A stretch of DNA of 64,000 nt, taken from NCBI RefSeq assembly GCF_026627445.1, contig NZ_JAPNLJ010000006.1, forward strand, positions 1-64,000, in the 5' to 3' direction. The position numbers were made by a program, and so were the translations under genes. The notes beneath the pieces were generated by a model, which saw nothing but the letters and a program-made list of their open reading frames with translations, had not been told where the DNA came from and ran no database searches. This document shows, one piece after another, positions 3,731-21,618 of this stretch (position 1 is the stretch's first letter; each line of letters begins with the position of its first letter). Source of the DNA: Streptomyces sp. H27-H1. GTDB taxonomy: Bacteria; Actinomycetota; Actinomycetes; Streptomycetales; Streptomycetaceae.

Positions 3731-4633
3731 ATGTGCGGCATGTCGCAGCCGCCCCACAACCGCAGTTCGGCACCTCCAGCGCGGCCGGACGCCTCCATGT
3801 CGCTGCTGACGCACGTGATGGACCACACCCTCGACGAGGGCTACGCGGAGGCTTCGGCCCGGCGTGAGTCCGAGGGAACGTCCGGCCTGCCGCGAACCCT
3901 CAAGGCCAAGCTGGGCCTTGCCGCCGGGCTCGTGCTCGCCGCCATGGTCGTCACCCTGGGTGCCGCGCAGGCGAGGGCGACCGCGCCGGTGCTGGCCAAG
4001 GAGCGTCAGGAACTCATCGACAGGGTCGAGCGGGCCGACGCGCACGCGGACGGTCTGGAGCGGGACATCGAGCGGCTGCGGGACACCGTCGCCGCCCGGC
4101 AGCGCGAGGCTCTCAAGCAGCACGGCGGCGAACAGGGCCAGCTCGTGGCGCTGCTGTCCGGAGCCACCGAGGTGCACGGGCCCGGGATCAAGCTGACGGT
4201 GGACGATGCGAAGGGCTCGACGACCGGAAACGGCTCGGAGCCGCGCGAGAGCGCCGGATTCTCCGACACCGGTCGGCTCCGCGACCGCGACATGCAGAAG
4301 ATCGTCAACGGGCTGTGGCAGTCGGGGGCGGAAGCGATCTCGATCAACGGGCAGCGGCTGACGTCCCTCTCGGCGATCCGGGCCGCAGGTGACGCGATAC
4401 TGGTCGACAACAGGCCGCTGGTGCCGCCGTACGAAGTGCTGGCGATCGGCGACAAGAAGCGGCTCGGGACCGAGTTCCAGGACTCCGCGGACGGCCAGTA
4501 CCTGCACGTGCTGCAGGAGAACTACGGGATCCGCTACTCCTTGTCGTCCGAGGCGGAGGTGCGCCTTCCGGCCGCGTCGAGCCTGACCGTACGTACGGCT
4601 ACAGCAGCAGAGCAGCAGAAGGGTGCATTGTGA
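3731..4633 (+). CDS. DUF881 membrane protein (first copy)
   Basis: A DUF881 family protein of 300 aa. One transmembrane segment lies at about residues 57-80 (LGLAAGLVLAAMVVTLGA), preceded by a cytoplasmic N-terminus and followed by a coiled-coil (about 85-135) and then the extracytoplasmic DUF881 domain with the typical HGPGIKLTVDDA and QSGAEAISINGQRL motifs. Its function is not known. Its stop overlaps the GTG start of the small basic protein gene by four bases, so the two are translationally coupled. An alternative ATG lies nine bases downstream at 3740. In Firmicutes, DUF881 and Sbp genes lie near cell-division genes; here the ftsR-type regulator lies about 2 kb downstream, which hints at an envelope or division role. 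Confidence 0.85.
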   Translation: MCGMSQPPHNRSSAPPARPDASMSLLTHVMDHTLDEGYAEASARRESEGTSGLPRTLKAKLGLAAGLVLAAMVVTLGAAQARATAPVLAKERQELIDRVERADAHADGLERDIERLRDTVAARQREALKQHGGEQGQLVALLSGATEVHGPGIKLTVDDAKGSTTGNGSEPRESAGFSDTGRLRDRDMQKIVNGLWQSGAEAISINGQRLTSLSAIRAAGDAILVDNRPLVPPYEVLAIGDKKRLGTEFQDSADGQYLHVLQENYGIRYSLSSEAEVRLPAASSLTVRTATAAEQQKGAL

Positions 4634-4962
4634 TCGCGGTACTGGGCCTCGTGGTCGGAGTGGTGGTCGGACTTCTGGTCCGGCCCGAAGTGCCGGCCGT
4701 GGTGGAGCCTTATCTGCCGATCGCCGTGGTGGCGGCGCTGGACGCGGTGTTCGGAGGCCTGCGCGCGATGCTGGACGGCATCTTCGTGGACAAGGTCTTT
4801 GTGGTGTCGTTCCTGTCCAACGTGGTCGTGGCGGCGCTGATCGTCTTCCTCGGCGACAAACTGGGAGTCGGCTCGCAGTTGTCCACGGGTGTGGTCGTCG
4901 TCCTCGGCATCCGCATCTTCTCCAATGCCGCGGCCATCCGCCGGCACGTGTTCCGGGCGTGA
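4630..4962 (+). CDS. sbp: Small basic family membrane protein (Sbp, DUF1290)
   Basis: A 110-aa protein with about three hydrophobic segments and the family sequence GGLRAMLDGIFVDKVFVVSF. Family members are small integral membrane proteins of unknown function, always found next to DUF881 proteins. The GTG start overlaps the upstream TGA, and the second DUF881 gene starts five bases after the stop, so the three genes form one tight operon encoding what is likely a membrane complex. Confidence 0.88.
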   Translation: MIAVLGLVVGVVVGLLVRPEVPAVVEPYLPIAVVAALDAVFGGLRAMLDGIFVDKVFVVSFLSNVVVAALIVFLGDKLGVGSQLSTGVVVVLGIRIFSNAAAIRRHVFRA

Positions 4963-4967
4963 GGCCG

Positions 4968-5861
4968 ATGAGTACGAACGACACCCCTCCCGAGGAGCCC
5001 GGAGCCTCGCAGCAGCGGGCGAAGGAGCAGCCTCCGCTGGAGCCGCCGGCCGGGACCGTGGGCCGTGAGCCCGGCCCCGGGTCGGCGGGGCCCGGGCCGG
5101 CGGGATCGGAGCCGGCGGGAGCCGCGCCGACCGGGCCCGAGCAGACCGGCCGGCAGCGGCTGGCGGCCGGTCTGTGGCCGCCACGGGTGAGCCGCGCCCA
5201 ACTGATCGTCGCGGTGCTGCTGTTCGTCCTGGGACTCGGCCTGGCGATTCAGGTACGGTCGAACAGCGACTCCAGCGCGCTGCGCGGCGCCCGTCAGGAG
5301 GACCTCGTACGGATCCTCGACGAGCTGGACGGGCGGACCAAGCGGCTGGAGGACGAGAAGCAGAAGCTCGACGACCAGCGCCGGGAGCTGGAGAGCAGCT
5401 CGAACCAGGCCGAGGAGGCCCGGAAGCAGACCGTGGAGAAGGAGCGCCAACTCGGGATCCTGGCCGGTACGGTGGCCGCGCAAGGGCCGGGGATCGTGCT
5501 GAAGATCACGGATCCCAAGGGTCAGGTGCTGTCGGACAAGCTGCTGGACACCCTTCAGGAGCTGCGGGCGGCCGGGGCTGAGGCGATCCAGATCAACGGG
5601 GTGCGGATCGTGGCGGACTCGTACTTCTCGGACGAGGAGGACGGGGTGGCGATCGGCGGTAAGAAGATCACACAACCCTATGAGTTCAAGGTGATCGGCA
5701 AGCCCCAGGACCTGGAGCCGGCGCTCAACATTCCCGGTGGCGTGGTCCAGTCGCTGGAGAAGGAGCAGGCGGTCGTCGGCGTCACACGTCCGGCGAAGAT
5801 CGTTGTGGATGCCTTGCGGGCTGCGAAGCAGCCTGACTACGCTCGGTCGTCATCGTCGTGA
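4968..5861 (+). CDS. DUF881 membrane protein (second copy)
   Basis: A 297-aa DUF881 protein. The N-terminal 70 residues are Pro/Gly/Glu-rich and probably disordered in the cytoplasm. A single membrane segment (AQLIVAVLLFVLGLGLAIQV, about 78-97) is followed by a charged coiled-coil (about 110-160) and the DUF881 domain with AQGPGIVLKITDP and AAGAEAIQINGVRI. The ATG at 4968 is preferred because it is the first start after the upstream stop; the open frame continues farther upstream but overlaps the sbp gene. It is paralogous to the gene at 3731, and the arrangement DUF881-sbp-DUF881 is typical of actinobacteria. Confidence 0.87.
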   Translation: MSTNDTPPEEPGASQQRAKEQPPLEPPAGTVGREPGPGSAGPGPAGSEPAGAAPTGPEQTGRQRLAAGLWPPRVSRAQLIVAVLLFVLGLGLAIQVRSNSDSSALRGARQEDLVRILDELDGRTKRLEDEKQKLDDQRRELESSSNQAEEARKQTVEKERQLGILAGTVAAQGPGIVLKITDPKGQVLSDKLLDTLQELRAAGAEAIQINGVRIVADSYFSDEEDGVAIGGKKITQPYEFKVIGKPQDLEPALNIPGGVVQSLEKEQAVVGVTRPAKIVVDALRAAKQPDYARSSSS

Positions 5862-6050
5862 TGCGGGACCAACGGGAGACCGGCTCACGCGGGCGAATGC
5901 CTGCGGGGGGTCGGCGCACTGAAGTCGCGGTGCGTGGTGGAAACTGTCTGATGGTTACGGACGTTGTAGGTATGTCCGGGTCGGCAGGTGTTGCATTCGG
6001 AGTTCGTCCTGCCCCACGGGCGGGTCTGTTTCGGTCAAGGGGAATCGCCC

Positions 6051-6887
6051 GTGAAGTTGTTTGAGAAGTTGTTCGGCAAGAAGAACCGCGAGGACAGCGG
6101 TGCGGCCAGGCACCGCGCGAGGCACGGAGACGTGGAAGGGCAGGGCGACCGGCCGCTCTTCCGGGACGAGGTTGCCGGGGCGGGGGATATTTCGGGCGCG
6201 CACGGCGCGTCGAATGTTGACCCTGCCGGTACCGGACGCATAGGTTTCGGTGAACCATCAACCTCAAGTACGGGTGGAGGGTTCAACTCCGACCCGTATG
6301 CCACCAATGCCTCCGCGGGGCAGCCGCGGCGCGAGGAGCCGTCCATGTCGGCCGAGCAGATTTGCAGCAGGTGCGGGCACCGCAGCGATGCGGCGAGCCG
6401 GTTCTGCTCGAACTGCGGGGCGCCGTTGCGGGCGGGTCTGACGCCGGAGCGTGCCTCGGAGACCACGTCCACCATCTCGATCTCGGGCCTGGAGGCCTAC
6501 GAGGCCGAGGTGTCGGGACAACAGCACGTGTCGTCCTCGCTGTCCCCCGAGGCCCAGGCCGCGGTGGAAGCGCTGCCTCCGGGTTCCGCACTGCTCATCG
6601 TGCGGCGCGGCCCGAACTCCGGCAGCCGGTTCCTCCTGGACGGTGAGCTGACGACGGCCGGCCGGCACCCGCAGAGCGACATCTTCCTGGACGACGTCAC
6701 CGTCTCCCGGCGCCATGTCGAGTTCCGCAGGCGCCAAGACGGCGGTTTCACCGTCGCCGACGTCGGCAGCCTCAACGGCACGTACGTGAACCGTGAACCG
6801 ATCGACTCCGTCTCCCTGAACAACGGCGACGAGGTGCAGATCGGCAAGTACCGGCTGGTCTTCTACGCGAGCCTGCGGGGGCACTGA
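6051..6887 (+). CDS. garA: FHA-domain regulator of the GarA/OdhI type with N-terminal extension and zinc ribbon
   Basis: GarA/OdhI proteins are small FHA proteins that, depending on phosphorylation by Ser/Thr kinases, bind and tune 2-oxoglutarate dehydrogenase and glutamate enzymes. The 278-aa protein keeps the kinase target motif E137-T138-T139-S140 and an FHA domain at about 182-270 with R205, S219-R-R-H and N242, the phosphothreonine-binding residues. Unlike the short mycobacterial form, it has about 100 extra N-terminal residues and a four-cysteine ribbon (C105, C108, C119, C122). The GTG at 6051 follows aagggga at about 8 bases; a longer frame from 5988 lacks such a site. It is followed at 19 bases by the ftsR-type merR gene, as in corynebacteria and mycobacteria. 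Confidence 0.88.
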   Translation: MKLFEKLFGKKNREDSGAARHRARHGDVEGQGDRPLFRDEVAGAGDISGAHGASNVDPAGTGRIGFGEPSTSSTGGGFNSDPYATNASAGQPRREEPSMSAEQICSRCGHRSDAASRFCSNCGAPLRAGLTPERASETTSTISISGLEAYEAEVSGQQHVSSSLSPEAQAAVEALPPGSALLIVRRGPNSGSRFLLDGELTTAGRHPQSDIFLDDVTVSRRHVEFRRRQDGGFTVADVGSLNGTYVNREPIDSVSLNNGDEVQIGKYRLVFYASLRGH

Positions 6888-6906
6888 CCCTTCAAGGGAA
6901 GGTCCC

Positions 6907-7680
6907 ATGCTGCGTATCCCGGCAGGCGGTGCCGCCAAGAGCGGCGCCGCCGGCACCGCCTCCTCGGGCGTGCGGCTGGTGAGCATCGGAACGGTGCTCA
7001 CGATGCTGCGCGACGAGTTCCCCGAAGTCACGATCTCGAAGATCCGTTTCCTGGAGGCGGAGGGGCTCGTCGAGCCCCGGCGCACACCTTCCGGATATCG
7101 CAAGTTCAGCACCGACGACGTGGAGCGCCTCGCTCACGTCCTGCGGCTCCAGCGGGACCACTACCTTCCGTTGAAGGTCATCCGCGACCAGCTCGACGCG
7201 CTCGCACGGGGCGAGCAGATCCGCATCCCGGCGCCCACGGCGCACGGGGAGTCCGTCGACCCCGCCAGCCCCGTCGCCCTCTACGGAGAGGTCGGCCGGG
7301 AACGGCCGACCGTGGCCCGGGTGGGCCGGGCCGAGCTGATCGCCGCCGCGGACGTGGACGAGGTGCAGCTCGTGGAGTGGGAGTCGTACGGGCTCATCGC
7401 GGAGGCGCCCGGCGGCGGTTTCGACGCCGAGGCCGTCACCGTGGCCCGTCTGGTGGCCGATCTCGGACGATTCGGCCTGGAGCCGCGCCACCTGCGGGCG
7501 ATGAAGGCCGCCGCCGACCGGGAGGCCGGTCTGGTGGAGCAGGTCGTCTCGCCGCTGCGCCGACACCGCAATCCGCAGACCAGGGCCCATGCGGAGGCCA
7601 CCTTGAAGGAGCTCGCGGGGCTCTCCGTACGGCTGCACGAGGCCCTTGTGCAGACGGCTCTCGGGGTCCGGCTGCACTGA
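6907..7680 (+). CDS. ftsR: MerR-family regulator, FtsR type
   Basis: A 257-aa MerR protein. The winged helix lies at about residues 25-95 (SIGTVLTMLRDEF, SKIRFLEAEGLVEPRRT, SGYRKFSTDDVERL). In Corynebacterium the gene next to odhI in this position encodes FtsR, an activator of ftsZ; the same neighbourhood here (FHA gene upstream, DUF151 gene and second merR downstream) supports orthology. A second helical module at about 140-250 replaces the short dimer helix of metal-sensing MerR proteins, and no metal-binding cysteines are present. The ATG follows aagggaag. The role in Streptomyces division is inferred from the family, not from this sequence. Confidence 0.85.
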   Translation: MLRIPAGGAAKSGAAGTASSGVRLVSIGTVLTMLRDEFPEVTISKIRFLEAEGLVEPRRTPSGYRKFSTDDVERLAHVLRLQRDHYLPLKVIRDQLDALARGEQIRIPAPTAHGESVDPASPVALYGEVGRERPTVARVGRAELIAAADVDEVQLVEWESYGLIAEAPGGGFDAEAVTVARLVADLGRFGLEPRHLRAMKAAADREAGLVEQVVSPLRRHRNPQTRAHAEATLKELAGLSVRLHEALVQTALGVRLH

Positions 7681-7787
7681 TCCGGAGGGTATTTCGGGCG
7701 GGCTCCGGGGGATTTCGCAGGGGCCGCGGGGCAAGCTTGGGGGAGCCCGACTACCCAAACCTGCCGGGCAGGTCCTAGGGTTGCTGT

Positions 7788-8261
7788 GTGAACGAGCTCG
7801 ACGTTGTGGGTGTCCGCGTGGAAATGCCCTCGAACCAACCGATCGTGCTCCTGCGTGAAGTGGGAGGCGACCGGTACCTCCCCATCTGGATCGGACCAGG
7901 GGAGGCGACCGCCATTGCCTTCGCGCAGCAGGGCATGGCCCCTGCCCGGCCGCTGACGCACGACCTCTTCAAGGACGTGCTGGAGGCGATCGGCCAGGAG
8001 CTGACCGAAGTGCGGATCACGGATCTGCGGGAAGGCGTCTTCTATGCGGAGCTCGTCTTCGCCAGTGGAGTCGAGGTGAGCGCGCGGCCTTCCGATGCCA
8101 TAGCGCTCGCCCTGCGGACCGGGACGCCGATCTACGGCAGCGACGGCGTGCTCGACGACGCCGGAATCGCGATCCCGGACGAGCAGGAGGACGAAGTGGA
8201 GAAGTTCCGCGAGTTCCTCGACCAGATCTCGCCAGAGGACTTCGGTACCGGCCCGCAGTGA
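7788..8261 (+). CDS. Bifunctional nuclease family protein (DUF151)
   Basis: A 157-aa protein of the DUF151/bifunctional nuclease family, small proteins with reported DNase/RNase activity in plants and a mycobacterial homologue. Family motifs are visible: LPIWIGPGEATAIAFAQQG, RPLTHDLFKDVLEAIG and ARPSDAIALALRTGTPIY. The acidic C-terminus (DEQEDEVEKFREFLDQISPEDF) is typical. GTG start at 7788. Its place between two merR genes is conserved in actinobacteria. The physiological substrate is unknown. Confidence 0.87.
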   Translation: MNELDVVGVRVEMPSNQPIVLLREVGGDRYLPIWIGPGEATAIAFAQQGMAPARPLTHDLFKDVLEAIGQELTEVRITDLREGVFYAELVFASGVEVSARPSDAIALALRTGTPIYGSDGVLDDAGIAIPDEQEDEVEKFREFLDQISPEDFGTGPQ

Positions 8262-8354
8262 GGCGCGGGTCGCGCCGTCCTCCCGGATATTTCAGCCCAT
8301 TCGAGTAGCCTTTCCCCGCAATGGGGTACGGGAAACCACTCTCAGGGTGATTAT

Positions 8355-8372
8355 CACTCGGCGTGCCGAGTG
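8355..8372. promoter_or_regulatory. Palindrome upstream of the second merR promoter
   Basis: A perfect inverted repeat, cactcggc-gt-gccgagtg, ends 9 bases before the -35 hexamer of the promoter at 8382. Its position fits an activator or repressor site. Which protein binds it cannot be read from the sequence; the MerR protein encoded just downstream is one candidate. Confidence 0.5.
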
Positions 8373-8381
8373 TGGCGATCG

Positions 8382-8410
8382 TTGACGCACCCCTGGTGAC
8401 TGCCTACCTT
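8382..8410 (+). promoter_or_regulatory. HrdB-type promoter for the second merR gene
   Basis: TTGACG (8382-8387), a 17-base spacer, then TACCTT (8405-8410), a close match to the principal sigma factor consensus. The predicted start is near 8417, leaving a short leader that contains the cggaggg ribosome site before GTG 8443. The 17-base spacing is not the 19-20 bases of classic MerR-activated promoters. Confidence 0.7.
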
Positions 8411-8442
8411 CAAGGTGGGCAGGTCAAGGACGGAGGGTCGGC

Positions 8443-9099
8443 GTGAGAGTCACGGGCGACGGTATGACCGGGGGCATCCCCGCACGGAGTGACGGTGGGC
8501 CGTACCCGCTGCACGGTGGTGCGGTGAACTCCGCGCGCCGTCAGCCGGAGCCCGCGCCGGTCGGTTCGGTGGGGCCGGTGGGTCCCCAGGGCGGCGAGAC
8601 CGCACCCGAGCAGGTCGGATACCGGGGGCCGACGGCGTGTGCCGCAGCCGGCATCACCTACCGGCAGCTCGACTACTGGGCGCGTACCGGGCTGGTGGAG
8701 CCCAGCGTGCGCCCTGCTTACGGGGCGGGCACGCAGCGCCTGTACAGCTTCCGGGACGTGGTCGTCCTCAAGATCGTCAAGCGCTTCCTGGACACCGGGG
8801 TGGCGCTGCAGAACATCCGCACCGCCGTGCAGCATCTGCGCGACCGGGGTATCACGGACCTCGAGCGGATGACGCTGATGAGCGACGGCGCCACCGTGTA
8901 CGAGTGCACCTCGCCGGATCAGGTGGTCAGCCTGCTCCAGGGTGGTCAGGGAGTCTTCGGGATCGCCGTGGGCGTGGCCTGGCGCGACGTGGAGAACGCG
9001 CTCTCGCAGTTGCACGGGGAGCGCGTGGACACAGGCGAGACGGTGGTCCGTCACAACCCGGCCGATGAGCTGGCCGCCCGGCGGAACCGGGCCGTCTGA
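8443..9099 (+). CDS. MerR-family regulator (second of the cluster)
   Basis: A 218-aa MerR protein. About 65 disordered N-terminal residues precede the DNA-binding domain (GYRGPTACAAAGITYRQLDYWARTGL, then RLYSFRDVVVLKIVKRFLDTGVALQNIRTAV, about 65-135). The C-terminal part has no metal-binding cysteine pair. It is the positional equivalent of mycobacterial Rv1828, which lies in the same garA - merR - DUF151 - merR cluster. It has its own good promoter and is preceded by a perfect palindrome. The ligand and targets are unknown. Confidence 0.85.
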   Translation: MRVTGDGMTGGIPARSDGGPYPLHGGAVNSARRQPEPAPVGSVGPVGPQGGETAPEQVGYRGPTACAAAGITYRQLDYWARTGLVEPSVRPAYGAGTQRLYSFRDVVVLKIVKRFLDTGVALQNIRTAVQHLRDRGITDLERMTLMSDGATVYECTSPDQVVSLLQGGQGVFGIAVGVAWRDVENALSQLHGERVDTGETVVRHNPADELAARRNRAV

Positions 9100-9175
9100 G
9101 GCGGGCAGCGCGCCTCGCCTACCGGTGGCGTCGGGTTCGGGCCGATTGTCAGTGCTCTAGGGCAGCATCGGAGCT

Positions 9176-10780
9176 GTGAGAGCCGCGCCGACCATCCTGC
9201 ACCTGGACATGGACGCCTTCTACGCTTCCGTGGAGCAGGCGTCCAAGCCGAGCCTGCGCGGCAAGGCCGTCATCGTGGGCGGGCTCGGGCCGCGCGGGGT
9301 CGTCGCGACCGCCTCCTACGAGGCCAGGCGGTTCGGGGTGCATTCGGCCATGCCGATGGCCCAGGCGCGGCGCCTCTGCCCGAACGGCGCGTGCCTCATT
9401 CCGCGCTTCAGCCTGTACCGCGAGGTCAGCGACACGGTCATGGCGCTGCTGCGGGAACTGTCTCCGCTCGTCGAGCCGCTGAGCCTGGACGAGGCCTTCG
9501 TGGACCTGGAGGCGGGCGGCGTCGCCTTCGACGCGCAGGCCGCGCGGGCCACTGGTCTGCGGCTGCGGGCCGATATCGCCGCCGCGACCGGGCTGAGCGG
9601 GTCAGTGGGGCTCGCGGGATCCAAGATGCTGGCCAAGGTGGCGTCCGAGGAGGCCAAGCCGGCCGGGCTGCTGCTGATCGAGGTCGGCACGGAGCGGGAG
9701 CACCTCGCACCGATGTCGGTACGGACCCTGCCCGGGGTCGGTCCGGCCACGGGGGAGCACCTGCGGCGTGCCGGGATCACCACAGTGGGGGAGCTGGCGG
9801 CGGCCGGCGAGGACGAACTGGTCCGGATGGTCGGGCGTTCGCACGGGGTCGGGCTGCACCGGATGGCGCTGGGGCTGGACGACCGGCCGGTGGTCGCCGA
9901 GCGGGACGCGAAGTCCGTGTCGGTGGAGGACACCTTCGACGTGGACCTGCACGACCGGGTGCGGATCCGCAACGAGGTGCAGCGGCTCGCGGACCGGTGC
10001 GTGGAGAGGCTGCGGGGGTCGGGGCACTCAGGGCGGACCATCGTGCTCAAGGTACGGCGGTACGACTTCTCCACGCTGACCCGGTCGGAGACCCTGCGGG
10101 GGCCCACGGACAACGCGGCGGTGGTGCGGGAGGCGGCGGCGCGGCTGCTGGAGTCCGTGGACACCACGGGCGGGGTGCGGCTGCTGGGCGTGGGCGTCTC
10201 GGGGCTGGCGGACTACACGCAGGAGGACCTCTTCGCCTTCGCCGATGCGCTGGCCGCGCGGGGGGAGGGCGCCGAGGCGGGTGCCGGTTCGGCTTCGGAC
10301 GCGGGGGCTGCGGCGGGCGCGGCTGCCGGTGTGGCGGGGAACGCGGAGGCCGCCGTGGCCGGCGGTGCGGACACTGCCGGCGGGGACGCCGTGCGGGAGG
10401 CGGCCGACGCCGAAGGCGGACAGGGCCGGGACCTGAGCGCCGGGCGGGAGGCCGGGGAAGGGCAGGGCGAGGGCACCGGGCCGGGCCTGGTTGCCGGGCC
10501 GGTCCGCGGGGGCGGGGCGGTGCCCGGGGGCGGCGAAGGCGGGCTTGGGCGGCGCTGGTCGGCCGGGGGCGATGTGCGGCATGCGGTGTACGGGCCCGGC
10601 TGGGTGCAGGGCAGTGGCGTCGGGCGGGTCACCGTACGGTTCGAGCAGCCCGGATCCGAGCCGGGCCGGGTACGGACGTTTCGGGTGGACGACCCCGAGC
10701 TGGAGCCGTCCGATCCGATGTCGCTGGTCGGGGACCGGGTCGCGGGAGTCGCGGGCCGGACGGCTCCGGAGCGGGCCTGA
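9176..10780 (+). CDS. dinB: DNA polymerase IV (Y-family, translesion)
   Basis: An error-prone DNA polymerase that bypasses lesions. The N-terminus has HLDMDAFYASVEQ with the first catalytic Asp, and SLDEAFVDL holds the second acidic pair (about residues 103-110). Palm, thumb and little-finger regions run to about residue 360. Residues about 360-465 are a long Ala/Gly/Glu-rich linker absent from the usual 350-400-aa enzymes. A C-terminal region (HAVYGPGWVQGSGVGRVTVRFEQPGS...RTFRVDDPEL) follows, also seen in other Streptomyces DinB proteins. The linker gives strong off-frame open frames that are artefacts. GTG start at 9176. Confidence 0.92.
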   Translation: MRAAPTILHLDMDAFYASVEQASKPSLRGKAVIVGGLGPRGVVATASYEARRFGVHSAMPMAQARRLCPNGACLIPRFSLYREVSDTVMALLRELSPLVEPLSLDEAFVDLEAGGVAFDAQAARATGLRLRADIAAATGLSGSVGLAGSKMLAKVASEEAKPAGLLLIEVGTEREHLAPMSVRTLPGVGPATGEHLRRAGITTVGELAAAGEDELVRMVGRSHGVGLHRMALGLDDRPVVAERDAKSVSVEDTFDVDLHDRVRIRNEVQRLADRCVERLRGSGHSGRTIVLKVRRYDFSTLTRSETLRGPTDNAAVVREAAARLLESVDTTGGVRLLGVGVSGLADYTQEDLFAFADALAARGEGAEAGAGSASDAGAAAGAAAGVAGNAEAAVAGGADTAGGDAVREAADAEGGQGRDLSAGREAGEGQGEGTGPGLVAGPVRGGGAVPGGGEGGLGRRWSAGGDVRHAVYGPGWVQGSGVGRVTVRFEQPGSEPGRVRTFRVDDPELEPSDPMSLVGDRVAGVAGRTAPERA

Positions 10781-11028
10781 GAGGTTCTCTGCCCGGCCGG
10801 CGGGCTGGGGGAGCCGTCCACTGCCGCTCGGTCCCGTGTGCTGCCGGGTGGGAGGGGGGTGGGTTGGCGTCCCCGTCGTGGGGGTGCGGAGATCCGCCTA
10901 GCGGCCGTGTGGCCTGGCGGTGGCGGTGGTGTCCGCCCGCGAGGTGTGGCCCAGCCCACTGCCCCGGTCCGGTTGTCACGGGGAAGCGGTCCGGGTCGGC
11001 CGACGCGGCCGTTCGGCTTCGGCGGAGG

Positions 11029-11394
11029 TCAGGATTCGTCGACGGTTCTGTGGCCGAAGTCGTGCTGGAAGTCGGTCGGGAGGGCCAGGTCCAGTCCGTA
11101 GTGGTGGTAGAGCTGCAGCTCCTGTTCGGGGGAGAGATGGCGGCCGACGCCGAAGTCGGGGGCGTCCTTGATGAGGGAGCGTTCGAAGGGCACGCGCAGG
11201 GTGTCGCCCACCATCTCGCTGGGCTCCAGCGGGACGAAGGCGTCCCGGCTGAAGAGTCCGGTGCGCACGGCGGCCCATTCCGGGACGCCCGTGGCATCGT
11301 CGAGGTAGACCTCGTCGACGGTGCCGATCTTGGTGCCGTTGCGGTCGAACGCCTTGCGGCCGATCAAGCTGCGGGGATCGATGTCGGTCTGCAC
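11029..11394 (-). CDS. PRC-barrel domain protein
   Basis: A 121-aa protein with a PRC-barrel beta domain at about residues 6-75 (LIGRKAFDRNGTKIGTVDEVYLDD, FVPLEPSEMVGDTLRVPF). PRC-barrels are found in RNA-processing and photosynthetic proteins and in many short stress proteins of actinobacteria. The C-terminal third is charged and has HLSPEQELQLYHHYGLDL. The GTG start at 11394 follows a strong aggaggga site. It is transcribed away from gcvP. The function is unknown. Confidence 0.82.
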   Translation of the reverse strand: MQTDIDPRSLIGRKAFDRNGTKIGTVDEVYLDDATGVPEWAAVRTGLFSRDAFVPLEPSEMVGDTLRVPFERSLIKDAPDFGVGRHLSPEQELQLYHHYGLDLALPTDFQHDFGHRTVDES

Positions 11395-18928: not shown

Positions 18929-19747
18929 TCACGGTGCGCTGAGCAGCTCCCCGTCGATGACCGTGACCGCGCGTCCGGTCAGCAGCGTACGGTCGCCCAG
19001 CACCCGGACCCGGACGAGGCCGGTGCGGGCTCCGCCCTGGAGGCCGACGAGCTCCGTGCGGCCCAGCCGCTGTGCCCAGAACGGGGCCAGGGCGGTGTGG
19101 GCGCTGCCGGTGACCGGGTCCTCGTCGATGCCGAGCGCGGGGAAGAAGCCGCGTGAGACGAAGTCGTACCCGCGGGAGGGGTCTTCGGCCGCCGCGGTCA
19201 CCATGATCCCGCGCCGGGCGTAGCTGCGCAGTGCGGCCAGGTCGGGGGTGAGCTCGCGTACGGCGCGCTCGTCGGCCAGCTCCACCACGAGGTCGCCGAT
19301 GTGGGCCGAGGTGTCGTGGACCGATGTGACCACGGCGCCGAGTGCGCGCTCCACGGCGGCCTCCGTTTCGACCTCGGTCAGGGAGGAGGTCGGGAAGTCC
19401 ATGACGAGGGTCCCGTCTCCGGCGGGCGTGACCTCCAGGATCCCGCAGCGCGCCGAGAAGCGGATCGTCCCGGTCGCGAGGCCGCTCGTGACCAGGACAT
19501 GGGCGGTGGCGAGGGTCGCGTGACCGCACATGTCGACCTCCGCGGACGGGGTGAACCAGCGCAGCGCCCAGTCCGCCTCGCCGCCGGGCGGCAGGGGATG
19601 GGCGAAGGCGGTCTCGGAGAGGTTGACCTCGGCGGCGACCTGCTGGAGCCAGCCGTCCGTGGGGAACCCGCCTTCGAGGAGCAGGACCCCGGCGGGGTTG
19701 CCGCCGAAGGGGCGGTCGGTGAAGGCGTCGACGATTCGGATGCGCAT
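18929..19747 (-). CDS. PhzF family isomerase/epimerase
   Basis: A 272-aa PhzF-fold protein, two diaminopimelate-epimerase-like halves. The N-terminus MRIRIVDAFTDRPFGGNPAGV and the catalytic E45 in NLSETAF are intact, as is MCGHATLATAHVL. PhzF makes phenazine in pseudomonads, but in most genomes paralogues have unknown isomerase roles. No other phenazine genes are present, so a role in phenazine biosynthesis is unlikely. Complete, monocistronic. Confidence 0.88.
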   Translation of the reverse strand: MRIRIVDAFTDRPFGGNPAGVLLLEGGFPTDGWLQQVAAEVNLSETAFAHPLPPGGEADWALRWFTPSAEVDMCGHATLATAHVLVTSGLATGTIRFSARCGILEVTPAGDGTLVMDFPTSSLTEVETEAAVERALGAVVTSVHDTSAHIGDLVVELADERAVRELTPDLAALRSYARRGIMVTAAAEDPSRGYDFVSRGFFPALGIDEDPVTGSAHTALAPFWAQRLGRTELVGLQGGARTGLVRVRVLGDRTLLTGRAVTVIDGELLSAP

Positions 19748-19852: not shown

Positions 19853-20125
19853 TCAGTCGCTCGGCAGGAGGGCGGCCAGTTCGCGCAGGCCGGGGAGGTG
19901 CTGGGGGTCGTAGGGCATCGTCAGGCGGTACCCGCTGCGGCCCAGCGTGATCACCATCGTCGGCCGCCGGCCCTCCGTTAACTCCACGCGGGGCCGTTGC
20001 CACACGTGCCACCGGTGCACGTCCACGGAGCCGAACAGCTCCAGTACGCGGCCGTCGAAAACGAGCAGGGCGGTGTCGCTCACCTGCGCCTCACACGCTT
20101 CATGAGCTTCATAGGAGGAGGTCAT
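19853..20125 (-). CDS. Conserved hypothetical protein, 90 aa, start codon at a transposon junction
   Basis: A small soluble protein with a beta-rich centre (LLVFDGRVLELFG, RPRVELTEGRRPTMVITLGRSGYRLTMPYDP). I do not recognise a function. The ATG (20123-20125) lies in the 5-base target duplication GTCAT directly beside the mobile element at 20126, so the insertion removed the native leader and ribosome site. Translation may now use element sequence (gagacgggaca) or the internal GTG at 20083, giving 76 aa. Codon use fits a real gene. Confidence 0.6.
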   Translation of the reverse strand: MTSSYEAHEACEAQVSDTALLVFDGRVLELFGSVDVHRWHVWQRPRVELTEGRRPTMVITLGRSGYRLTMPYDPQHLPGLRELAALLPSD

Positions 20126-20860
20126 TGTCCCGTCTCAGTGAAGTTTGACCATTCTCACTGAAGTTTGACCGGTCGCGGCTCTACGTTCGCGGCCGTTGGG
20201 CTTGCGAAGGGCGGGACGACGGTGGCCACACCTGCACGGGCATTCGATGGTGAGGCACCCCGGCCCCCGCGCACCCCGGCCAGGCCCTGAAAGGCCGTGG
20301 CTCAGGCCAGGTGCAGCACTCCCACACTGTCGTTAAGGCCGTAGTTTCCGCGCCTGCGGGTCAAAGCAGTTGAGGCCCATCGACGAAGCAATCTCGGACG
20401 CGTGGGCAGATGCCTCATCTGCCATGCTCCACCGCATGGGGAAGTAGATCAACGGGCCGCGGGCCTCCCCGATCAGCGGAGCGGTTGACCAGGGCGAGGT
20501 GTCATCGTCGTCTTCGGTGAGCTCCGGCCACCGTTCCAAGAGCACGGCGACGAAGGCCGCTATGCGCTCAGCTGGAGGGACCGCAGGTTCTTCCGTGTCG
20601 ATGAAGCGGTCATACAGGTCGTTGAAGCACCGGGCCGCAGCAGCGTCATCCGCCGGCCGCTCGCCCTCCCACACAGCAAGGTCATAGCTCATGGGCGCAG
20701 CCTGCCATCTGTCACCGACAGCCAGACCGGCGAACCAGATCATCCGCGGCAGGTCAGATCGCCTGAGACGGGGCAGCCCCGTCTGGTGAAACTTCGATGA
20801 GACGAACGGGCCAGTCGTCAGACTTCAGTGAGACCGGTGCATCTTCGCTGAGACAGGACA
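20126..20860. mobile_element. 735-bp non-autonomous transposon-like element with target duplication
   Basis: The ends are inverted repeats: left TGTCCCGTCTCAGTGAAGTT, right (reverse complement) TGTCCTGTCTCAGCGAAGAT, 17 of 20 identical. It is flanked by the direct repeat GTCAT (20121-20125 and 20861-20865), a 5-base target duplication. Inside the ends the motif TCTCA-N-TGAAGTTTGACC recurs: twice at left (20133-20150, 20154-20170) and in degenerate form three times at right (near 20788, 20819, 20843). Subterminal repeats and a 5-base duplication are IS21-like features. No transposase is present; the only gene is the 119-aa cargo on the minus strand. The family assignment is an inference. Confidence 0.75.
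20333..20692 (-). CDS. Cargo gene of the mobile element: hypothetical protein, 119 aa
   Basis: A soluble acidic protein starting MSYDLAVWEGERPADDAAAA and ending MGLNCFDPQARKLRP. Similar MSYDLAVWEG-type proteins are scattered in Streptomyces, but I know no function. It is the only open frame within the element bounded by the inverted repeats and was probably carried in with it. The ATG at 20692 is used because that is where the similarity begins; the frame extends 17 codons upstream. The residues ERIAAFVAVLLERWPELTEDDDD suggest an acidic helical middle, reminiscent of small immunity proteins, but this is only a resemblance. Confidence 0.62.
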   Translation of the reverse strand: MSYDLAVWEGERPADDAAAARCFNDLYDRFIDTEEPAVPPAERIAAFVAVLLERWPELTEDDDDTSPWSTAPLIGEARGPLIYFPMRWSMADEASAHASEIASSMGLNCFDPQARKLRP

Positions 20861-20904
20861 GTCATGCGGCGATCCTAGGTGTTCGTTGAAGGAGTTTCCG
20901 ATAT

Positions 20905-20937
20905 ATCGTTGACGCATCGCGATGCGTCAACGATAGT
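20905..20937 (+). promoter_or_regulatory. Promoter with embedded 30-bp perfect palindrome (PadR operator)
   Basis: The 15-base half atcgttgacgcatcg (20905-20919) is followed immediately by its exact reverse complement (20920-20934). The palindrome contains the -35 box TTGACG (20909-20914) and the 17-base spacer, and touches the -10 box GATAGT (20932-20937). A protein bound here would block polymerase. The padR gene starts 60 bases downstream, and PadR proteins usually repress their own gene through such a site, so autoregulation is likely. Confidence 0.8.
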
Positions 20938-20997: not shown

Positions 20998-21618
20998 ATG
21001 CGTTCACACGGACAGCACGGACACGGCCACGGACATGAGCACGGACGGGGTCACGGCCACTGCGGGCCGGACCGTCGGGAGGAGTTCCAGGAGCGGCGCG
21101 CCGCCTTCGGGCCGTTCGGGCCGCCTTTCGGCGGCGGGCCCTTCGGCGGGCGCGGCGGCCACGGCGGACCGCGCGGCAGGGCCCGGCGGGGTGATGTACG
21201 CGCCTCCATCCTGGCGCTGCTCGCCGACCGGCCGATGCACGGTTACGAGATGATCCAGGAGATCGGCGAGCGCAGCGGCGGGGTCTGGAAGCCCAGCCCG
21301 GGCTCGGTCTACCCGACCCTGCAGCTCCTCGAGGACGAGGGCCACATCACCAGCCAGAGCGAGGGCGGCAAGAAGCTCTTCACGCTCACCGACGCCGGCC
21401 GCACCGAGGCCGAGTCCGGCCCGGACGCCCCCTGGGCGGAAGCCGGGCGGGGCTTCGACTTCGAGGCGATGAACGAGGTCCGGACGGCCGGTTTCGGCCT
21501 GATGGAAGCCTTCGGCCAGGTCTTCAAGACCGGCACTCCCGCCCAGCGGGCGAAGGCCCTCACCGTCATCAACGACGCCCGCAAGAAGCTCTACCTGATC
21601 CTGGCCGACGAGCACTGA
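20998..21618 (+). CDS. PadR family transcriptional regulator with His-rich N-terminus
   Basis: A 206-aa regulator. Residues 1-63 are His/Gly/Arg-rich, with runs such as HGQHGHGHGHEHGRGHGH followed by Gly/Phe repeats, and probably bind metal. The PadR winged helix is at about 65-140 (GDVRASILALLADRPMHGYEMIQEIGERSGGVWKPSPGSVYPTLQLLEDEGHI), and a C-terminal helical dimerisation part follows. ATG 20998 has a good aaaggag site. The promoter is covered by a perfect 30-bp palindrome, pointing to autorepression. No transporter or enzyme lies next to it in the same direction, so its target is not evident. Confidence 0.9.
   Translation: MRSHGQHGHGHGHEHGRGHGHCGPDRREEFQERRAAFGPFGPPFGGGPFGGRGGHGGPRGRARRGDVRASILALLADRPMHGYEMIQEIGERSGGVWKPSPGSVYPTLQLLEDEGHITSQSEGGKKLFTLTDAGRTEAESGPDAPWAEAGRGFDFEAMNEVRTAGFGLMEAFGQVFKTGTPAQRAKALTVINDARKKLYLILADEH

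What the first reader, a model, noticed from the sequence alone, without database searches (positions are those of the whole stretch)
20121..20865. Intact-looking 735-bp non-autonomous transposon carrying a single cargo gene
Inverted termini (17 of 20 bases), internal subterminal repeats of TGAAGTTTGACC type and a perfect 5-base duplication GTCAT on both sides show a transposition event in which only a 119-aa gene, not a transposase, was carried. Such a MITE-like unit with a gene inside would be moved by an IS21-like transposase in trans. The cargo type (MSYDLAVWEG) recurs in Streptomyces, so the element may be a vehicle that spreads this gene.
Basis: partly seen in the sequence, partly recalled or inferred. 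Interest (0 to 1): 0.75.

Follow-up and report, generated by a model that had tools for sequence, protein, structure and literature searches.

The report
Shrunken Tn7-like transposon at padR hotspot
A 735-bp stretch of a Streptomyces chromosome has the ends and a relic gene start of a Tn7-like transposon, from which it likely shrank to a single gene, and it lies beside a conserved control sequence of the padR gene where Tn7-type ends sit at nearly the same distance in 15 of 392 genomes, so that sequence is predicted to be a landing site.

Summary
In detail: a 735-bp element (20126-20860), termini matching at 17/20 and 36/44 bases, GTCAT on both sides, one 119-aa gene. The IS21 reading does not. 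A 6.5-kb element in G379 has the same ends and encodes TnsA, TnsB, TnsC and two TniQ proteins, a Tn7-like set. The window copy looks like its internal-deletion form: left end, first ~60 bp of tnsA, a relic of the DUF2199 region, the cargo gene, right end. G232 and G024 hold sister minis (798, 746 bp) that kept DUF2199 instead. All four lie between phzF and padR. In 15 of 392 genomes a Tn7-type end lies 36-41 bp from CGATATATCG upstream of padR, and in 0 of 392 at 51-81 bp. Several end types, ten different 5-bp duplications and two elements in a row in G379 point to repeated arrival. Best reading: the padR promoter/operator is a preferred attachment site, predicted to be read by a TniQ/TnsD-type selector; the window copy is a stripped remnant, probably stranded (no TnsB found). 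The site is not exclusive: one G379 element has an identical copy elsewhere. Not shown: movement of minis as units, cargo function, a base-exact empty site.

The parts
20121..20125 (.). left copy of the 5-bp target duplication GTCAT; its last three bases are the start codon of the 90-aa ORF on the minus strand
20126..20169 (+). left end with two 20-bp-spaced repeats
   Evidence: matches the G379 element end
20195..20256 (+). relic of the 5' end of tnsA
   Evidence: alignment to the G379 element, whose tnsA starts at its base 71
20264..20319 (-). relic of the DUF2199 region: the last codons of the gene and its 3' flank
   Evidence: about 74-75% to G232 and G262; aligned to G232 and G379
20333..20692 (-). 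cargo gene, 119 aa (MSYDLAVWEG family)
   Evidence: 89% protein identity to the G379 copy
20776..20860 (-). right end with degenerate repeats, facing padR
   Evidence: 89-94% to G379, G262, G232, G024
20861..20865 (.). right copy of the target duplication GTCAT
20881..20937 (.). conserved padR promoter/operator-like block with CGATATATCG at 20899 and a perfect 16-bp inverted repeat at 20904-20935; predicted attachment block, 38 bp from the element end
   Evidence: recognition is inferred
20998..21618 (+). padR regulator gene
   Evidence: PF03551, 2.6e-21
18929..19747 (-). phzF-like gene on the far side of the site
   Evidence: PF02567, 5.2e-62

Best explanation
The 735-bp unit has the ends of a Tn7-like (TnsABC-TniQ) transposon and relics of its genes, and is likely an internal-deletion remnant of such an element, predicted to have been delivered to its padR site by a TniQ/TnsD-type target selector. 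Shown: its ends, cargo gene and relics match, in order, a 6.5-kb element in G379 that encodes TnsA, TnsB, TnsC, two TniQ proteins and DUF2199. Shown: Tn7-type ends of several kinds lie 36-41 bp from CGATATATCG upstream of padR, with different 5-bp duplications. Inferred: TniQ recognises that conserved block and TnsABC joins the element a set distance upstream, leaving the padR promoter whole, as TnsD does at glmS for Tn7. Inferred: the window copy lost tnsA-tniQ and DUF2199 by internal deletion, somewhat more likely after insertion than before, and is stranded unless transposase comes in trans.
For: Same ends and contents in order; Tn7-like genes between those ends in G379; 15 of 392 genomes with a 36-41 bp spacer against 0 of 392 at 51-81 bp; conserved block beside a non-conserved junction region in 47 sequences; eight exact 5-bp duplications among 16 loci, and 6 of 24 exact-end pairs with about 0.04 expected; two successive elements in G379 with GGGAC and GCAGT duplications; recent mobility at least of the second of these, which has a 100% identical 5,746-bp copy elsewhere with a CTGAT duplication; TnsD of Tn7 reads a site +23 to +58 from a 5-bp duplication (PMC2918618, passages); no TnsB in G000 while the same search rings in G379.
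Against: No binding or transposition was tested. The site is not exclusive: the second copy of the G379 element lies away from padR, a window-type right end in G385 and a left end in G227 have no padR in the stretches read. The second G379 element is at 33 bp, outside 36-41. Six of 16 loci lack a far end or a duplication. Only the G379 element of the window type is complete. A base-exact empty site was not found.
Confidence: 0.8

Rival explanations
1. The mini moved into this chromosome as a mini, carried in trans by TnsABC-TniQ of a co-resident element since lost, so it is a mobile single-gene cassette.
For: Both ends and the duplication are intact in the window and G232 copies, while larger relics at the site in G319, G345 and G012 have lost recognisable ends.
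Against: The three minis have private junctions, the window mini was seen once among 392 genomes, and no TnsB of this type was found in G000.
Confidence: 0.35
2. The shared position reflects one ancient insertion inherited by all these species, not repeated targeting.
For: The locus order is conserved, and relics of the window family recur there.
Against: Different end types, ten different 5-bp duplications that match on both sides, two successive insertions in G379 and opposite stacking order in G262; in 12 of 29 relatives phzF starts 86-159 bp from the block with no room for an element.
Confidence: 0.05
3. Insertions gather here because the transposition proteins prefer an AT-rich promoter or a harmless gap, not because a TniQ protein reads the padR block.
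For: The block is AT-rich in a GC-rich genome, and insertions upstream of it spare padR; recognition is untested.
Against: The spacer is confined to 36-41 bp in 15 of 15 exact-pattern hits and none at 51-81 bp, tighter than harmlessness requires.
Confidence: 0.12
4. It is an IS21-derived MITE moved by an IS21-type transposase.
For: Subterminal repeats and a short duplication are also known in IS21 (recalled).
Against: The element with matching ends carries tnsA/tnsB/tnsC/tniQ; the IS21 model gives 12.8 bits against 160.
Confidence: 0.02

Closest known systems
Tn7 at attTn7 (glmS), TnsD-directed (PMC2918618, passages)
   Same: TnsABC plus TniQ/TnsD-type genes in the parent, repeats at both ends, 5-bp duplication, one orientation, insertion a set distance from a conserved block.
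   Different: The block is a promoter/operator-like palindrome upstream of padR instead of the end of a coding gene; the window copy has no transposition genes.
Actinobacterial Tn7-like transposons (TnsA_like_Actin, NF033179; clade 2 of PMC8649781, passages)
   Same: The G379 TnsA matches NF033179 at 1e-89; Streptomyces plasmids carry related tnsA-B-C sets.
   Different: No attachment site for them appeared in my searches; whether this element falls in clade 2 was not tested by a tree.
Miniature inverted-repeat elements (MITEs) and other non-autonomous derivatives
   Same: Short, both ends kept, transposase lost by internal deletion.
   Different: Single copy, holds an intact gene, sits at a Tn7-type site.

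Membership tests
Tn7-like transposon (family of the window element's ends) | an element with the same ends encodes TnsA, TnsB, TnsC and TniQ | tested here: met
   G379 element L032:2776-9258; the two TniQ hits and TnsA are near or below the Pfam cut-offs (27.9 and 24.9 against 27; 25.5 against 26.5), TnsA far above the NCBIfam one
Tn7-like transposon (family of the window element's ends) | 5-bp target duplication | tested here: met
   GTCAT twice in the window; further 5-bp cases
Tn7-like transposon (family of the window element's ends) | arrays of TnsB-binding repeats at both ends | tested here: inconclusive
   repeats are present; binding not tested
Tn7-like transposon (autonomous) | own tnsB | tested here: not met
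   only a tnsA start relic remains, so the window copy is a derivative, not a complete member
Tn7-like transposon (TnsD-type targeting) | set-distance insertion beside a conserved site | tested here: met
   36-41 bp in 15 of 392 genomes, 0 of 392 at 51-81 bp; the selector itself not tested
IS21 | IstA-type transposase in the element with matching ends | tested here: not met
   IS21 model 12.8 bits, cut-off 160
MITE | multiple copies in the genome | tested here: not met
   one copy with both ends in G000
MITE | short, terminal repeats, duplication, no transposase | tested here: met

The most novel reading that the evidence does not exclude
The padR promoter/operator of Streptomyces is a shared attachment site at which a TniQ-type selector reads a regulatory palindrome instead of a coding-gene end; several Tn7-like subfamilies dock and stack there, and stripped single-gene minis travel to it in trans as interchangeable one-gene cassettes.
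Probability: 0.35. Interest if true: 0.72.

Novelty: new variant of a known kind. Interest (0 to 1): 0.6.

Why it matters
The Tn7-like clade dominated by actinobacteria is described as experimentally uncharacterised (PMC8649781, passages). This gives a concrete, testable attachment site in an antibiotic-producing genus, a candidate selector (the 318-aa or 171-aa TniQ of G379), natural minis that help define the minimal ends, and a possible docking site for adding genes to Streptomyces chromosomes. It also corrects the family of a short element easily taken for an IS21 derivative.

Tried and rejected

Limits and dropped rows: searches used exact patterns, so 15 of 392 is a lower bound; G024 (38 bp) was missed, and G025 (39 bp) and G056 (41 bp) have ends with two mismatches. 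One search did not test spacers under 24 bp. The 47 sequences were chosen by CGATATATCG and its next four bases, so conservation there is by construction; that from -18 to -1 and beyond +13 is not. In one search the far ends of G106 and G158 were allowed one mismatch and picked partly by their duplication, so those two are weaker; G204 shows 7 matching bases and G024 4; G352 was flagged only with a shifted frame and is not counted. One search left out loci below L031, the window, L051, L081-L095 and L114 onwards. Short paired ends away from padR (for example L036, L037, L042, L043) gave no exact 5-bp duplication. Genomes of one genus are not independent. My note listed L052 and L055 as empty sites; searches do not bear that out, and they are not used as such.

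Full report
The element. The window holds a 735-bp unit at 20126-20860 between two GTCAT copies. Its ends match at 17 of 20 and 36 of 44 positions; the best of 200 simulated pairs reached 29 of 44. It carries one gene of 119 codons on the minus strand.

What the ends belong to. A search of 392 genomes of the genus with the 745-bp stretch matched 132, many of them only in the cargo gene. In several, both ends lie near each other with different DNA between. In G379 they enclose 6,483 bp (L032:2776-9258) with GGGAC on both sides. That element encodes a TnsA (NF033179, 1e-89), a TnsB-type transposase (Mu C-terminal domain and a weak rve match; the four PDB sequences matched are all named TnsB, E 0.0015-0.0022), a TniB/AAA TnsC, a 171-aa and a 318-aa TniQ protein, a DUF2199 protein and a cargo protein 89% identical to the window's. 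This is a Tn7-like set. The IS21 model gives 12.8 bits against a cut-off of 160.

How the window copy arose. Against the G379 element, bases 6-131 of the window element match the left end and first codons of tnsA; bases 139-194 match the last codons and 3' flank of DUF2199; bases 196-735 match the cargo gene and right end. The order is that of the large element with blocks missing, so internal deletion is the simplest history. The cargo gene has stayed intact: against G379, 21 codons differ silently and 13 not, and 25 of 37 base changes are at third positions. G232 (798 bp, GGGCG on both sides) and G024 (746 bp, 4-bp match) are sister minis that kept DUF2199 and have no cargo gene; their left junctions differ from each other and from the window's. 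G262, whose longer copy is damaged, also lacks the cargo gene, so the cargo may have been gained in one branch rather than lost in the others. Relics of the same family lie at the same locus in G012, G319, G345 and G334.

Where it sits. The window, G379, G262, G232 and G024 copies lie between phzF and padR; G334 lies beside padR with no phzF in the 19 kb read. A search for a Tn7-type end followed after 24-50 bp by CGATATATCG hit 15 of 392 genomes, with a spacer of 36-41 bp in all 15; at 51-81 bp it hit 0 of 392. If spacers of 24-50 bp were equally likely, 15 of 15 within six values would have a probability near 2e-10 (my arithmetic; the genomes are not independent). In 47 distinct sequences chosen by CGATATATCG, conservation extends from about -18 to +39 while the junction region is not conserved. 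So the end lies outside the conserved block at a set distance.

Repeated arrival. Of 16 loci examined, eight have exact 5-bp duplications (window GTCAT, G106 TCCTC, G351 GCCAC, G381 TCGGG, G185 AGCGG, G375 TCGGC, G158 ACAGA, G232 GGGCG), one a 7-base match (G204), one a 4-base match (G024); six have no found far end or no duplication (G142, G262, G342, G334, G352, G052). Pairing only exact ends gave 6 duplications among 24 pairs, about 0.04 expected (window not included). In G379 two elements stand in a row: the first with GGGAC on both sides, the second with GCAGT on both sides and 33 bp from CGATATATCG; without the second, the first would lie 41 bp away. In G262 the window-type element is nearest padR and another type lies beyond it, the reverse order. 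tnsA, tnsB, tnsC and a tniQ were matched at G204, G381, G142, G158, in pieces at G185, and in the second G379 element. In 12 of 29 relatives (L052-L080) phzF starts 86-159 bp from the block, which leaves no room for an element.

Recent movement and a second kind of target. The second G379 element has a 100% identical 5,746-bp copy a megabase away, flanked by CTGAT on both sides, with no padR and no similar block in the 17 kb read. So this group has moved recently with 5-bp duplications, and padR is a preferred but not the only target. Tn7 too has more than one target route (recalled; TnsE is mentioned in PMC8649781, passages).

Mechanism. TnsD of Tn7 binds +23 to +58 from the centre of a 5-bp duplication (PMC2918618, passages). 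By comparison I infer that a TniQ protein of these elements reads the padR block. G000 has no TnsB match by a search that rings in G379, and one weak TnsA fragment elsewhere (46 bits, cut-off 110), so the window copy is likely stranded. Whether it shrank after or before insertion is open; private junctions and single occurrence favour after, intact ends favour before.

Cargo. One search found 619 relatives at E <= 0.001, a profile search 1126 (120 listed each, named hypothetical or uncharacterised where I saw a name). Of 28 loci with cargo relatives (L003-L030) one, G385, has convincing Tn7-type ends within the 1.5 kb flanks, so the element is a minor vehicle for this gene. The model (mean pLDDT 89.9) is ferredoxin-like with no informative relative. 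I give no function.

Against the reading. Besides the second G379 copy, a window-type right end with cargo occurs in G385 within a nest of other ends, and a left end with a truncated DUF2199 in G227, neither with padR in the stretch read.

Literature. Searches and term look-ups in PMC10293859 and PMC8649781 (0 occurrences of PadR in the main texts) showed no report of a padR attachment site or of natural single-gene Tn7-like minis. Supplements were not read, and the library holds open-licence papers only. PMC10293859, PMC8649781 and PMC2918618 were seen as passages; all others as search listings.

Noticed in passing
window 19853-20125: A 90-aa ORF lies between phzF and the element, its start codon inside the left GTCAT copy; it was found at no other padR locus read and may be left from an earlier arrival at the site.
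   Followed up: partly
L149 (G379:C1:7143000-7160000), 5624-11370: A 100% identical second copy of the G379 Tn7-like element with a CTGAT duplication, away from padR: recent transposition to another kind of target.
   Followed up: partly
L038 (G385:C38:24000-36000), 5900-8160: A nest of several TGTCCYGTCTC-ended units of different types, one of them carrying the window-type cargo and right end.
   Followed up: partly
L036 1908-2540, L037 1809-2418, L042 3035-3608, L043 3173-3913: Short paired Tn7-type ends (about 0.6-0.7 kb) at places without padR; no exact 5-bp duplication found.
   Followed up: partly
L130 (G000:C121:193000-203000), 4745-5251: The window's own genome has a DUF2199 gene elsewhere (79% protein identity to the G379 copy) without matching transposon ends around it.
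   Followed up: partly
L125 (G000:C94:44000-56000), 5685-6098: A TnsA-like fragment below the family cut-off, the one trace of Tn7-type transposition genes found in this genome.
   Followed up: no
L031 about 3975-5166: ORFs that look like an IS630-type transposase (by eye, recalled) interrupt the short tniQ gene of the G262 element.
   Followed up: no
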